NCBI RefSeq assembly: GCF_003473485.1
Contig: NC_053042.1
Span: forward strand, 52,539,762-52,603,761
Length of the DNA stretch: 64,000 nt
From: Medicago truncatula
Taxonomy: Eukaryota; Streptophyta; Magnoliopsida; Fabales; Fabaceae
Direction: 5' to 3'
Shown: positions 54,286-64,000 of the stretch, piece after piece
Numbering within the stretch: the first letter of the stretch is position 1
How the letters are laid out: each line of letters opens with the position of its first letter
Translations under genes and position numbers: made by a program
The notes under the pieces: model-generated
What the model was told of the DNA's origin: nothing
Seen by the model: only the letters and a program-made list of their open reading frames with translations
The model's database searches: none

Positions 54286-55780
54286 CAACGCATACAGATT
54301 TGACTACATTGACTTTTTTCAAATTAATCTTTATAGTCTCATAGAAACAAATTATGTATTGAAACACCAATTGCCAAGAGATGCTAGTTTCTCCACATGT
54401 AATGCAACAATATAACTTGTTGATGCTCGGGCTTTATGAGAATCATAGGAACATCCAAAATCAGCATATTCTACCAATGAAATAGTTGCTATGTAATAGG
54501 ATACATAACACTTTACGTTTAGATTATGTCTATAGAAGATTTGAAATTGAAACTATTGTTCGATAGTGCAGTATTTATACGACTGGGAATCTAAAAAGTT
54601 CCATTCAATGAGTCACTTGATCATCTGTTTTATTATAAATTACAAGTGTCGTGTTTGTAAAAGAAAAAAGTGTTAAAACGTCCTCCTCTTGGTGAGTTTA
54701 CTCCATCCTTTACATTCTTACATATTATTCTATAGTCTCATTGTTAGAACGTTCCACCAAAATCACTACCAAGTGTTGTGGTAGAGTCCTCATGTATCCG
54801 CCTCTAAACTCTGGCCACTCTACCTCATTCAGATTTGGTCTGTCCACCAAAGCTGCCAAATGTTACACGTAATTTCATTGCTGCACTGATCAGAAGGTTT
54901 CAATCAGTATTGAGATTGTTTTTTGCGATGAAAGATGATAACGTTTCAAAAGTAATTTTGATTCCTTGGACTTCCTAGTTTGCAGGAAAAATTTGCTAGT
55001 CTCTTATATGATATTCTTAGGACAATCGAACTTAACCACAATAATCTTTGAGGTTTGAGGATATTTAGAATGACCAAACTGAATATGAGACTAATATTTA
55101 TTTCACTTTTATTAATGATGGGAATTTTTTGTCAAAAATAATTACTAACAGTCAAAATGAGTTTCTCCTAAAAAAAACAGTCAAAATGAGTTTTTTCAAT
55201 TGAATTTGCCCCTCTTGATATGCTATCATAGCCTCGTTTCCCCTTCAAATTATTCCTATGGTTCACGACTGACCTCGTGTTTTTCATTTTTTAACAATTG
55301 AGTTGTCTAATCTTATCAAAATTTCAAGGAACTCACCCTATATAAATTCCACCAGTAAGCATGTACCAAAGTAAAACTAATGAAATTCCATACTCTTGGA
55401 GAAATTAGACAAGAGAACTGAGAAAGATCACAAAGGTAGAAGCGGGTTATACTTATAAAAAGTAGGATAACATGATCTATTTTTATTTTCATTTTTTATT
55501 AGAAAATTATATTTTTCTTGTTTGAATGAAGATGATGTTAAATGTTTAATACAGCAGCTAATGATAATAATTTTTTCCTTTGGGAGGAGCAAATAGCAGT
55601 TTGATAACTTTCCATAGTTTCTACAAACATCATTCCAATTCACAAGTTACAATACATGAAAGAATATTGCTATTACCCACAACCAATACTTCATGGAGAA
55701 AAGGAAAATCCTCCTATAACAGGTCCTGATTCATGTCAAGATGAGATAAACTTCTTCGACCTCGCAAAAAACACAACTAA
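54286..55780. other. Convergent spacer between CWF19L2 and the MED21 copy
   Basis: Both genes end here. CWF19L2 3' untranslated sequence is expected just after 54285. No coding frame or bounded repeat was recognised. Confidence 0.4.
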
Positions 55781-57528
55781 CTAACTAACATATGGTTTCT
55801 TCAAGTTCAAACAATTATCTGATGCATGCATAAACAACTCCTGACCCTGATTTGATTCCTTCTCTGACATTAAGAACCACGATGATAATATGTTAAAGCA
55901 GTAACATTTACATGTGTCATTTCCTCAAATCAAGAACCAGTATGTATATCTTAAAATCCCAACAAGGCAATGTTGGTTTAAAATTATGTATTTAATTTAC
56001 ATACATAAACAGTGAAATTAAGTTTCACACACACATACAATTGTATTTTGTTATCTTATTGTAGTGTAAATAAGTTTTAAGCAATATTACATATGATACA
56101 GTACGAAATACAGTTGGGCATCTCTATAAAATATGATTTTTTATGTTAGTGTATGTTTGTGTATAGTTACATGAACAAGATAGCTTCGTCTTTCGATTCA
56201 TTTTTCAAACTAAACACAATGATGCTATCTGCCGTATATGAAAGTTATGCAGCAGGACAGGGCACGTTTTTACAGAGAATCTAGCCCATCGAAGACCCTG
56301 ACAAATCTTACTATTGGTATGGGTACTTAAAGTAAATTTACACTAACCAGTTATAAAGATAAATCAAGATAAAAACAGAGAAAACTCTAGACCTGCAGTT
56401 TCCAATTGCTTCTGAAGTTCTTGGCATATTGCATCATTTTCAGCCTGTAAAGTGATATCCAGAAACGATGAAAACATTAATATCATCAGTTACAATTAGA
56501 CTATCACGTCAAAAGCTACGCGATCAGTCACATATCAAGTCGGTTAGCTGTGTGTTACATACTTGTAGTTCTTTAATCCTCTTAACTCTTAAGTTGTGCT
56601 TCTTCTCCTGCATCAGATATTGCAAGCGATGCAACCAATGCATCAAACTGCAGAAGAAACAACATATAAATAGCTCAAAGGACAGCTCATGAATGGTCTA
56701 TTAATATTGTTGAAATATAGAAGACAGAAAGCATGATGACTATGTCCAATATTACTATAAAATTTCAAAACTAACAGTGTGCTATAGTTATCCTCCAAGA
56801 GAATCACATAACTAAGACTCTTTTTGGTAAAAAAAAAAAATAAAGATGACGGATAAAGTAGCTAATAATAGGCGAACTTGCGAGTAACATATAAGATAGC
56901 CAATAGCTAATAGCATATAAGCGGGATGATTGAATTTGAAGTATTTGGTAAAATTAATGGATGAACTAACTAGTAAATATAAAATGACATAAAGTAATTT
57001 TTAAGTAGTATTTAAATTTTTTCATTTAAGATAATGAAGATTAAAAATATTATACTACAAGCTCAAACTCTACTTAGCATCTCAAAATATATAGTAAGAT
57101 CAATGTTCTTCATCAATCTAATGGTGACAAATGTCATTTTTGTTATACAAAAAAAAAATCACCATTTTTTAATGTCTCCTACAGTAGGAGACCTATTCTC
57201 GTCTCCTACCGGAAACGGCGCCTATGATACAACATTTCCATGTTTGAAACTTCTTATAAAATTTCTAAACTTTTTTTAAGCATGTATCTATTCTACTTCT
57301 GAATAAAATGCTATATACCTGCTTAGCAGCCTTCATCAAAGTAGAAGCCATCAACTTTGGTTGTTCTGAAAAATTTGCACTATCCATTGATGTAGTATGT
57401 GCAGGTGGTTCAGGGTAATTTGGTGAAAGCTGACTAGAAGGAGCATCCCTTTGCAATGTCCCAACAGTATTAGAAGCTAAATGTGCTATCAAATTAACTT
57501 GTTCTTGTAACTGGGAGACTATATCCAT
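55781..57528 (-). pseudogene. MED21: Mediator subunit MED21 gene copy disrupted by a 7-bp tandem duplication
   Basis: Four exons keep MED21 structure: 57528-57319 (MDIVSQLQEQVNLIAHLASN start, with GTLQRDAP and LSPNYPEPPA), 56647-56563 (FDALVASLAISDAGEEAQLK), 56444-56393 (AENDAICQELQKQLETA) and 55863-55781 (ELFMHASDNCLNLKKPYVS). All junctions are GT-AG and in phase except that exon 2 is 85 nt instead of 78. TTAAGAG is repeated in tandem at about 56580-56594, producing a stop two codons later. Without the extra 7 nt the copy would be ~140 aa, the family's normal size. MED21 is a small, essential subunit of the Mediator middle module. The residues retained suggest a recently inactivated duplicate, unless this is an assembly or sequencing error. 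Confidence 0.85.
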
Positions 57529-57529
57529 C

Positions 57530-58690
57530 GTCGAAGAAACTTTATGGCGATAATTTCAAATTAACAAAGTTCAACTGCAGAATAAGAAACATAAAGGTTA
57601 TCGATACGTTTATACATATGCAATTACGGACATATGTAGTCAAAATCCAGTTACATGCTTATGACAAATCTAAATTCTAATGAAAACAAAGATTCTGACA
57701 AATGAAGGTAGAAGGTAGAAGCCGTTTCGTTTAGCTTTGCTATAAATGAAAGAAAATGACATAGGTAGCCATCACAGTACTTGGTTTAGACATTTTATCA
57801 AACACCTAACATACTATTTTAAGCACATATTCAGTAAAAAATGAAGTATATATGAATTTAAAAATTGAGCAATTAGCTATTTATTTATGCTATTGAACAA
57901 GGGATTTGTATAACAATGTTGTTCTAAAAGTAATGAACCCAGCAATACATACACGAATTTATGTGCTGAAATGTGAAGTGATAGCTTCTAATTACCAACC
58001 ACAAGTAACATTCTATTTCTAATTTGTGCTCCCTCTTCTATTCACAATACCTGAATACCAGTTAAAAACAACTTCAGATAAAAAGATACGTCAAAACAAA
58101 AAAAGTTTACTATATAGTATTTTTTTTGAAAGATGTTTACTATAATTAAATCTAACAATTATATATTAGATCTAATTTGTATCGTTGTCATTTTTTTTTT
58201 AGTTCAAACGGTGGACATTCGTAGAAATATTTTTTAAATTAACTGGTAATGACATTTGTAAATTGTAGAGATATTTTAAGAATTAAAATAATTTGATTGG
58301 TTGTATTTGTAAATTTTCTTTTATAGGATAACATTATAACCATTAGATTGGAGGATTTTTTGACTCAAAATCGATTTAAGATAAACGAAAACACGCCGAA
58401 TAAATTTTGGATGGACACAAAAATTTGGATCCTCTATTGATTATACACAAAAAAGTAAAACATTACATGTTATAATCATCTAAAAACTAATGATTATTTT
58501 TTTTTTTTTTTTTTTACTTTTCCTTTTTTATGTGTGTATGGCTAAACAGAGGATATAAATTTTTGGAGTCTAGGTATGCTCCATTTAGTCATTTAAGTCA
58601 TGATGTATGACATGTGGCAAAAGAATATTCAAGGGTTAAGATTTAAAATAAAAATAATTTGTTTACTAAAACAAAACCCAAAACTTGTAT
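57530..58690. other. Upstream region of the MED21 copy and AT-rich spacer
   Basis: No gene was recognised. Long T/A runs occur at about 58192 and 58498-58516. Confidence 0.4.
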
Positions 58691-59402: not shown

Positions 59403-59575
59403 GGGTAGCACTTGGGTGCCATTGATACTTTTGTGTCTATCTCTCTTAACAACTCATTTTCTCGCATTAAAATAATTTATTTTAATCATTCATTCATCAT
59501 TCTCTCTCATCTAAAATGAACCTATGTCACCAATGTTATAAAAAAACTATGGCACCGAAGTATTTCCCCTTCCTT
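59403..59575 (-). mobile_element. Inverted single copy of the ~192-bp array element
   Basis: Read on the minus strand it has GGTGCCATAGTTTTTTTA, GACATAGGTTCATTTTAGAT, GATTAAAATAAATTATTTTA and ends with CACCCAAGTGCTACCCG. This is the unit that is tandemly repeated at 59829-60549, but inverted and ~250 bp away. Confidence 0.85.
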
Positions 59576-59828
59576 TTCCATGTTATGACAATTAATTGAT
59601 GTCAATCAAGAGGATGTTCATGACATAATTATATATTGATTTATAAATTCCCCAAATTAATTTTATTGAATTGATTGTTTAATAATATGAATATTGAATT
59701 GAATTGCAACAGTCATGGATATTGAATATCGAAGGTTAAAGGGTTTTTTTTGTAAAAAAAATAAATAAACAAATCACATGCGAGGAAGAGTAATGATTGT
59801 TGTTTGCAGAGGAAGATGAGATGGAGAA

Positions 59829-60549
59829 ATACTTGGGTGCTATAGTTTTTTTGTGACATTGGTGACATAAGTTCATTTTAGATGAGAGAGAATGATGAAT
59901 GAATGATTAAAATAAATTATTTTGATGAGAGAGAATGAGTTGTTAAGAGAGAGATAGACACAATGGCACCAATGACACCAAAAGCCAATGACACCCAAGT
60001 GCTATCCGAAAAAAGGGGAAATACTTGGGTGCCATAGTTTTTTTGTGACATTGGTGACATAGGTTCATTTTAGATGAGAGAGAATGATGAATGAATGATT
60101 AAAATAAATTATTTTGATGAGAGAGAATGAGTTGTTAAGAGAGAGATAGACACAAAAGTATCAATGGCACAAAAAGTCAATGGCATCCAAGTGCTACCCG
60201 AAAAGAGGGGAAATACTTGGGTGCCATAGTTTTTTTGTGACATTGGTGACATAGGTTCATTTTAGATGAGAGAATGATGAATGAATGATTAAAATAAATT
60301 ATTTTGATGAGAGAGAATGAGTTGTTAAGAGAGAGATAGACACAAAAGTATCAATGGCACCAATGGCACCAAAAGCCAATGACACCCAAGTGCTACCCGA
60401 AAAAAGGGGAAATACTTGGGTGCCATAGTTTTTTTGTGACATTGGTGACATAAGTTCATTTTAGATGAGAGAGAATGATGAATGAATGATTAAAATAAAT
60501 TATTTTGATGAGAGAGAATGAGTTGTTAAGAGAGAGATAGACACAAAAT
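59829..60549. repeat. Tandem array of a ~192-bp MITE-like unit (three full, one partial)
   Basis: ACTTGGGTGCCATAG-type starts fall at 59831, 60023, 60215 and 60414, giving periods of 192, 192 and 199 bp. The difference is due to an extra CAATGGCACC-type repeat and small indels. Each unit carries TTCATTTTAGATGAGAGA, GATTAAAATAAATTATTTTG and GAGTTGTTAAGAGAGAGATA and ends with CACCCAAGTGCTA. Unit ends are inverted versions of one another (ACTTGGGTGNCAT). The fourth copy stops at about 60549. Confidence 0.9.
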
Positions 60550-61033: not shown

Positions 61034-61545
61034 GTCTTGTTAATCGGTGTTCCGGGACACCGATTAAAGAATCCAAAAATAGAATTTGTCTTAAAAATAT
61101 AAGGGTGTGTTTATTTCAAGTTATATTTGTTGATTCCAGAGAATAAAATGATAGAAATGTATATGCCTATGTTTGTTACAAGTTTACTAAATTTTATTTT
61201 CGGGTATAAAATGTTCATGGGAATAGAAAAAATTTCCCAAAGATAAGGATGGGAATAAAGTTCCCATGGAGATGGGAATAAATTCATATGTAGTTGCCTA
61301 TTATAATCCCTATTTTTATGGTTTCTAGGAATATTATAAAGTTAACCAAACATATTTTTTTCTAAATACCTTGGAATAAAATTCTCATCTTTATATTCTA
61401 AGGAATGTTATTCCTAAGAATAAATTTGATAAACTTGAAACAAACACACTCTAAAAGTTTTTCCTTTTAATTAAATAATGATTAAGCGACTTTCTAATAA
61501 AAACTATTCTTTTGGTTGCTTAACCAATGACGTTGGGCACTAGTT
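61034..61545. mobile_element. MITE family C, interrupted by a Tourist-like element
   Basis: The left end GTCTTGTTAATCGGTGTTCC includes the palindrome AATCGGTGTTCC/GGGACACCGATT. The right end, inverted, reads ACTAGTGCCCAACGTCATTG. The Tourist-like element at 61103-61451 sits inside. Confidence 0.5.
61103..61451. mobile_element. Tourist-like (PIF/Harbinger) MITE, 349 bp
   Basis: Ends GGGTGTGTTTATTTCAAG and, inverted, GAGTGTGTTTGTTTCAAG. TAA is duplicated on both sides (61100-61102 and 61452-61454), the PIF/Harbinger signature. No coding capacity. Confidence 0.85.
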
Positions 61546-62170
61546 ACTCAATCCATTTCAAAATAAGCGTCGTTTTAGCCAATTACACACAGATTAATGA
61601 ATGAAATAAAATAGTCAAATGCCATAGCAATTTTACCAAATTATCCTAATCAACTATTGATTTATTTTTCATTAAAGAAAAAAATAATATTTTGGAAGTA
61701 GTGTAACATAATATTAATTGAAGGGTACGATTGAAAAGAAAAAATTATTATTGCATTGGAAACTGAAAGTGACATTCATCTTTATATTCTAAGGAATGTT
61801 ATTCCTAAGAATAAATTTGATAAACTTAAAACAAACACACTCTAAAAGTTTTTCCTTTTAATTAAATAATGATTAAGCGACTTTCTAATAAAAACTATTC
61901 TTTTGGTTGCTTAACCAATGACGTTGGGCACTAGTTACTCAATCCGTTTTAAAATGAGCGTCGTTTTAGCCAATTACACACAGATTAAGGAATGAAATAA
62001 AATAGTCAAATGTCATAGCAATTTTACCAAATTATCCTAATCAACTATTGATTTGTTTTTCATTAAAGAAAAAAATAATATTTTGGAAGTAGTGTAACAT
62101 AATATTAATTGAAGGGTACAATTGAAAAGAAAAAATTATTATTGCATTGGAAACTGAAAGTGACATTCAT
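61386..62170. repeat. 391-bp tandem duplication
   Basis: The segment from CATCTTTATATTCTAAGGAA at 61386 recurs at 61777 with only a handful of substitutions over ~390 bp. Each copy contains the right end of the Tourist-like element, a ~95-bp spacer and most of a Stowaway-like element. Confidence 0.93.
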
Positions 62171-62404: not shown

Positions 62405-63790
62405 TCATTTCGCCACGAGAAAATGAATGTTTGTCCTCTTATCATTAGACAATCTAATTCGGTTTTCAAATACATCCACAGGAATAAATTTCTTATCTAG
62501 AACTTTTGCCCTTTTAAAAAATTCATTGCTTAGTTTCTTTCTTTTTTCTTTATTATTGGAGCTCCAATAATTAGACAATTCATTATCATTATAGGAGATT
62601 TTATCTTTTGTGAAGAGATCCATTTTTTTTTCCATGATTTTCAGAAAACTAGATAAATCAGGTGGATACGTGAAAGAGATTCGTTCTTTTCCATCACTTT
62701 GACATATATGAAAAAAAAACTGTGAATTTTCATCTCGTACGACTCTTTCAAAGTGATCGTTTTTTATATATCGCAATGGCCTATTCCATTTTCGATAATC
62801 GAAAAGAGTAGTTACAAGAGGTTTTTCCAATGCCAAGAGATTATTATCTTGCTCAATGTTCTCCAAAGTCTTATCTTTTTTCGGAAAAAGATAAGAAAGA
62901 ATATCTTCTTCGTCTTCGATGGAGCCGTTTTGTTCTTGTTCCGAATCTATTTCAACATCGATTTCTGTTTCACCATTGATTTCATCCTTTTGTTTCTCGT
63001 CGTATTCTAAGATTTCATCAGTATAAGTATATAAATATGGAACCGGTGTTCTGCCTAAATAGTGGACAACGATAACAAATGAAAAAACAACAAATATTTG
63101 ACCCACATAATTTCGCAATTGTAATAGAATGTACTTATCAAATCGCATAGTTAACTTAGATTTGATCGAATTTTTTTGCTTTGACCAAACTAATAATATC
63201 AATCCAATACATTTCATCAAAAAGATATGACCAATTAACCAACCAAGAAAACTACTTGTTAAGAATAACAATTTATTGTTGGATCGAAAGAGATAAATGT
63301 TCATTAATCTTAGTAAGATTGAACTTGGGAAAAGCAAGGGGTTTGATAACTGAAAAAAAAGATTGTTAAAGAATACTTTGTAAATACGAAATTTACGTAT
63401 TGAATTTGGATTCTTGTATCCGTAATCCAAATCCAAATAAAAGTGAGAATCCGCCGAATAATAGTGTTTGTTGTTTTTGTATACGAAATTAAAGAAAAGA
63501 TACGGTAGAGTTAGGACAGTGATTGTATGAGGTCTAATCAAAGCCAAATGCAAAGGCGCATAATAGATCGATATGAACATCATAAGCTGTCCCGTAATAA
63601 ACCCGGTTGTTGCTGCTATTTCCGTCTCGGTCCCTTTGTCCATAACCCGGGCTCGAATAAGGAAGAGATAAGATGGCCCTATGGAGAATGTAGTCAGAAA
63701 TCCATAATACAGTCCCATCACAATGGCTGAATTTAGTATTTTAAGCCATAAACCTACTAAACGATCTAGTATAAACAATTGATAAATCAT
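62405..63790 (-). pseudogene. ycf1: Plastid-derived ycf1 (TIC214) 5' fragment in nuclear DNA
   Basis: An uninterrupted 461-codon frame begins with the ycf1 N-terminus (GLYYGFLTTFSIGPSYLFLI, then IAATTGFITGQLMMF). It continues with five or six membrane segments, the ILLQLRNYVGQIFVVFSFVI block, GRTPVPYLYTYTDE and the acidic ycf1 segment. Ycf1 is normally ~1,700-1,800 aa, so only the first quarter is present. The match seems to end around RIRLSND (62450), and the last residues (HFLVAK) probably come from flanking DNA. In plastids the product is a TIC translocon component. Here it adjoins nuclear MITEs, so it is read as a nuclear plastid insertion (NUPT) that may continue past 64000. Confidence 0.85.
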
Positions 63791-64000
63791 GAAAAACCTC
63801 TTTTAGTATTTTGATATTTATTGCAATTTTTATTCTTGCAATTTCATTACTATTCATATATGATATTAGTAATTCATATATGTTATTAGTATATGATATG
63901 AATTATTCATTTTCGTATTTTTTATTTATTATATATAATAATATATTATATGATATTTAGTAGATAGTAAATGTTATTTAGTATATTTAGTATATGTTAT
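63791..64000. other. AT-rich sequence upstream of the ycf1 start
   Basis: Simple TATATGATATTAGTA-type repeats. It may be the plastid ycf1 upstream spacer carried with the insertion; this cannot be decided from the window. Confidence 0.3.

What the first reader, a model, noticed from the sequence alone, without database searches (positions are those of the whole stretch)
56563..56647. MED21 copy killed by a 7-bp tandem duplication inside an otherwise intact exon set
All four exons and six splice sites of MED21 are preserved and in phase, but exon 2 has TTAAGAG twice in a row. It is 85 nt rather than 78, giving a stop two codons after the duplication. MED21 is an essential Mediator subunit, so either a second intact copy exists or this is an error. 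A weak GTTAAG donor created by the duplication could yield a shortened product.
Basis: partly seen in the sequence, partly recalled or inferred. Interest (0 to 1): 0.7.

Follow-up and report, generated by a model that had tools for sequence, protein, structure and literature searches.

The report
Plant MED21 gene copy, frameshifted
A plant copy of the Mediator gene MED21 keeps its four exons, but a 7-base repeat puts a stop in exon 2; it is most likely an ordinary, recently broken duplicate, though whether an intact copy exists in this genome could not be checked.

Summary
The minus strand holds a four-exon plant MED21 gene (Pfam Med21) with six GT/AG splice sites in phase. Exon 2 (56647-56563) is 85 nt and carries two perfect copies of a 7-base unit. 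The frame shifts, and the TAA stop lies inside the second copy, not two codons after it. The predicted protein has 91 residues and stops 71 nt before the last exon junction.

Exon 2 skipping or an internal AG could restore the C-terminal frame with an internal deletion; nothing shows that either is used.

Short exact tandem repeats are common here: 24 with a 7-base unit against 5.5 expected. The event looks like an ordinary mutation. I read it as a recently inactivated duplicate; a null allele or an assembly error stays open. The decisive test, a second MED21 in the same genome, could not be run: the genome search gave no answer in 15 attempts. No reads, transcripts or plant relatives were available, and the species is unknown. 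Low interest.

The parts
57319..57528 (-). MED21 exon 1, coding part (ATG to CAG|GT), 210 nt, ends in phase 0
   Evidence: together with the start of exon 2 it matches Pfam PF11221 at E 2.8e-13
56563..56647 (-). MED21 exon 2, 85 nt, frameshifted
56579..56592 (-). two perfect head-to-tail copies of a 7-base unit; premature TAA at 56584-56582 inside the second copy
   Evidence: stop coordinates derived from the offset
56585..56586 (-). GT of the donor-like site at the junction of the two copies (AGA|GTTAAG)
   Evidence: its use gives the same 91-residue protein
56393..56444 (-). MED21 exon 3, 52 nt
55781..55863 (-). MED21 exon 4, coding part to TAG, 83 nt
   Evidence: the C-terminal piece (end of exon 2, exons 3 and 4) matches Med21 profile 106-142 at E 0.024, 15.4 bits, below the family cut-off on its own

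Best explanation
A duplicated (or homeologous) plant MED21 gene that recently lost function through one small tandem duplication in exon 2, which arose by break repair or replication slippage. The frame shifts, translation stops after residue 91, and about the last third of the protein (end of exon 2, exons 3 and 4) is lost; the mRNA is a likely target of nonsense-mediated decay. An intact copy elsewhere is presumed, as MED21 is essential in Arabidopsis. Shown: gene structure, repeat, stop, and that the cryptic donor gives the same protein. Inferred: loss of function, recent date, mRNA decay, intact copy elsewhere, cause of the duplication.
For: Exons, splice sites and Med21 match. Stop 71 nt upstream of the last exon junction; the 50-55 nt rule for decay is recalled. 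Three introns are kept, so this is no retrocopy. The frame after the repeat is open to the normal end (products of 126-129 residues), which fits a recent event. Arabidopsis MED21 null mutants are embryo lethal (passage in PMC8203292), so a working copy or allele is expected. Segmental duplications were found for 65 of 95 soybean Mediator subunit genes (passage in PMC6770253; the passages I saw do not say whether MED21 is among them). Short tandem repeats are in excess in the window, and tandem duplications are a common kind of insertion in rice (passages in PMC7971508), ascribed to break repair. Weak signs of relaxed constraint: the P of a 'SLP' found in solved MED21 chains and in a recalled Arabidopsis sequence is A here, and both pieces score lower against Med21 than the recalled Arabidopsis pieces (50.8 and 15.4 bits against 59.2 and 22.9).
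Against: No second copy was seen: the own-genome search did not complete, and a DNA comparison found none in the rest of the window. The Arabidopsis sequence was recalled, not fetched, and a single comparison cannot show relaxed selection. No further disabling change was seen in the coding exons or splice sites, which would equally fit an error or an allele.
Confidence: 0.62

Rival explanations
1. A null allele on one haplotype of a heterozygous or phased genome, with the working allele on the other haplotype.
For: Arabidopsis plants heterozygous for med21 mutations appear wild type (passage in PMC8203292). The gene is otherwise intact.
Against: No haplotype or read data were available. The lower family scores would not be expected of a fresh allele, but that signal is weak.
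Confidence: 0.15
2. An assembly or sequencing error: the real locus has a single unit and is the working gene.
For: The rest of the gene is intact and MED21 is essential in Arabidopsis.
Against: A perfect 7-base duplication outside a homopolymer is not a typical read error (recalled). Weak control: 7 of 10 neighbouring stop-to-stop ORFs scanned match Pfam, one of them 512 codons long; but such ORFs are unbroken by construction, one of the 7 (HMA) is below its family cut-off, one is the plastid-type Ycf1, and 3 had no match. Whole neighbouring gene models were not tested.
Confidence: 0.13
3. The gene still works through altered splicing: exon 2 skipping (114 residues) or an AG inside exon 2 after base 67 (120 residues) restores the frame with an internal deletion.
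For: Both in-silico products keep the normal C-terminus.
Against: No transcript data. The stretch before the internal AG is purine-rich, without a polypyrimidine tract (sequence). Both products lose Med21-matching sequence.
Confidence: 0.07
4. The new GTTAAG donor yields a different, shortened MED21.
For: A GT stands at the junction of the copies.
Against: Its use makes exon 2 61 nt long and meets a stop at once in exon 3; the protein is the same 91 residues.
Confidence: 0.01

Closest known systems
Mediator subunit MED21 (Pfam PF11221; Arabidopsis MED21)
   Same: The first 90 residues match the family above the curated cut-off; the rest matches the following profile positions
   Different: Reading frame interrupted in exon 2; the predicted product lacks about the last third
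Unprocessed (duplicated) plant pseudogenes with one small frameshifting insertion
   Same: Introns and splice sites kept, one disabling change
   Different: An intact parent copy is not shown here

Membership tests
MED21 (PF11221) | Match to the Med21 profile above the gathering score | tested here: met
   N-terminal piece 50.8 bits, cut-off 37.3
MED21 (PF11221) | Rest of the protein encoded in the same frame | tested here: not met
   The C-terminal piece lies in a shifted frame behind a stop. Its score alone (15.4 bits) is under the cut-off, but so is that of the recalled Arabidopsis piece (22.9 bits), so the score does not decide. By descent a MED21 gene copy; as a working MED21 not met
Unprocessed pseudogene | Disabling change in an otherwise gene-like exon set with introns | tested here: met
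Unprocessed pseudogene | Intact parent copy elsewhere in the genome | not tested
   The genome search 'own' unanswered in 15 tries
Unprocessed pseudogene | No full-length product; neutral substitution pattern | not testable with these tools
   No transcripts at hand; scans of viral contigs and genome contigs confirmed no relative

The most novel reading that the evidence does not exclude
This is the plant's only MED21, and it survives by making an internally deleted MED21 through exon 2 skipping or an internal acceptor.
Probability: 0.03. Interest if true: 0.5.

Novelty: new member of a known kind. Interest (0 to 1): 0.12.

Why it matters
As a broken duplicate it is ordinary and matters mainly for annotation: gene finders may model around the repeat and report a wrong MED21. 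It would matter more only if no intact copy or allele existed, as MED21 is essential in Arabidopsis.

Tried and rejected
Cryptic GT donor as rescue: rejected, same protein. Second MED21 inside the window: none seen by DNA comparison of 55500-58500 with the window. Transposon footprint: considered, not favoured; a 7-base unit fits no common plant transposon family that I recall, and no test was run. Relatives in public collections: 6, 21 and 180 stretches matched a pattern, none confirmed by tblastn. Papers with the terms MED21, pseudogene and plant: 3 listed, none on a plant MED21 by title; I saw the listing only. The bacterial-type promoter scan has no bearing on a plant gene and is not used. 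The first count of 7-base repeats (19 observed, 6.5 expected from 20 simulated sequences) applied one filter to the observed repeats only, so, with the same filter on both sides, replaces it. Species identification: not achieved.

Full report
What is there. The window has 30-36% G+C in 4-kb steps. I read it as plant nuclear DNA from the MED21 sequence and from neighbouring ORFs that match a papain-type protease with a granulin domain, a multicopper oxidase, a CwfJ C-terminal domain and plastid-type Ycf1; the species was not identified. On the minus strand four exons encode a MED21-like protein: exon 1 57528-57319, exon 2 56647-56563, exon 3 56444-56393, exon 4 55863-55781 (coding parts). All six splice sites are GT/AG. 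The first 90 residues match Pfam Med21 at 50.8 bits (cut-off 37.3), the last 50 residues at 15.4 bits, at consecutive profile positions 1-105 and 106-142. The N-terminal piece also weakly matches three distinct solved MED21 chains (E 0.004 to 0.0057; the listing does not name the organisms).

The defect. A 7-base unit stands twice, perfectly, at 56579-56592. The protein as it stands has 91 residues. The stop ends 71 nt upstream of the last exon junction, so decay of the mRNA is likely by the usual rule, which I recall and did not test.

Rescue by splicing. The GT at the junction of the copies would make exon 2 61 nt long. The joined frame then meets a stop at once in exon 3, and the protein is the same 91 residues. 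Exon 2 skipping gives 114 residues. Of the 9 AGs tried inside exon 2 as acceptors, 5 keep the normal C-terminus (120 and 126 to 129 residues) and 4 do not; 4 of the 5 read the middle of exon 2 in a foreign frame, and only the one after base 67 (120 residues) is a clean internal deletion. None has transcript support.

How unusual the repeat is. The window holds 24 exact 7-base tandem repeats; 30 simulated first-order Markov sequences of the same length hold 5.5 on average and at most 9. Units of 5, 6 and 8 are in excess too (127 against 73.6, 60 against 20.9, 7 against 2.2); for 9 the numbers are 2 against 0.6, within the simulated range, and for 10 to 12 none were found. Some of the 24 are AT-rich or low in complexity. 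Short tandem repeats are thus common here. [quoted passage not shown] a break-repair model for plants and humans is also described in passages of PMC8355091. Those rice data concern insertions of more than 10 and mostly more than 50 bases, so slippage stays possible for this 7-base one.

Meaning. In Arabidopsis MED21 is essential: null mutants are embryo lethal and heterozygotes appear wild type (passage in PMC8203292). A plant with this sequence should therefore have a working copy or allele. Segmental duplications were found for 65 of 95 soybean Mediator subunit genes (passage in PMC6770253). I favour a recently inactivated duplicate. A null allele and an assembly error remain open. Weak signs of relaxed constraint come from a recalled Arabidopsis sequence (69% identity over the N-terminal piece; lower profile scores for both pieces) and carry little weight; one such comparison cannot tell relaxed selection from ordinary divergence between plants.

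What could not be done. So no second copy, reads or transcripts were examined, and the confidence is set accordingly.

Noticed in passing
62405-63802: A 465-codon uninterrupted ORF matching plastid Ycf1 (E 1.2e-162) beside nuclear genes, most likely a recent plastid DNA insertion; its borders were not determined.
   Followed up: partly
59826-60548 and 61385-62170: Two tandem arrays with units of about 192 and 391 bases (91-97% matches), between MED21 and the Ycf1 ORF; inverted copies of part of the first array lie at 59415-59578.
   Followed up: no
1-64000: Exact tandem repeats with units of 5 to 8 bases are in excess over a first-order Markov model, e.g. 24 against 5.5 for unit 7.
   Followed up: partly
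57704-57721: Another exact 7-base tandem repeat (2.6 copies) about 180 bases upstream of the MED21 start codon.
   Followed up: no
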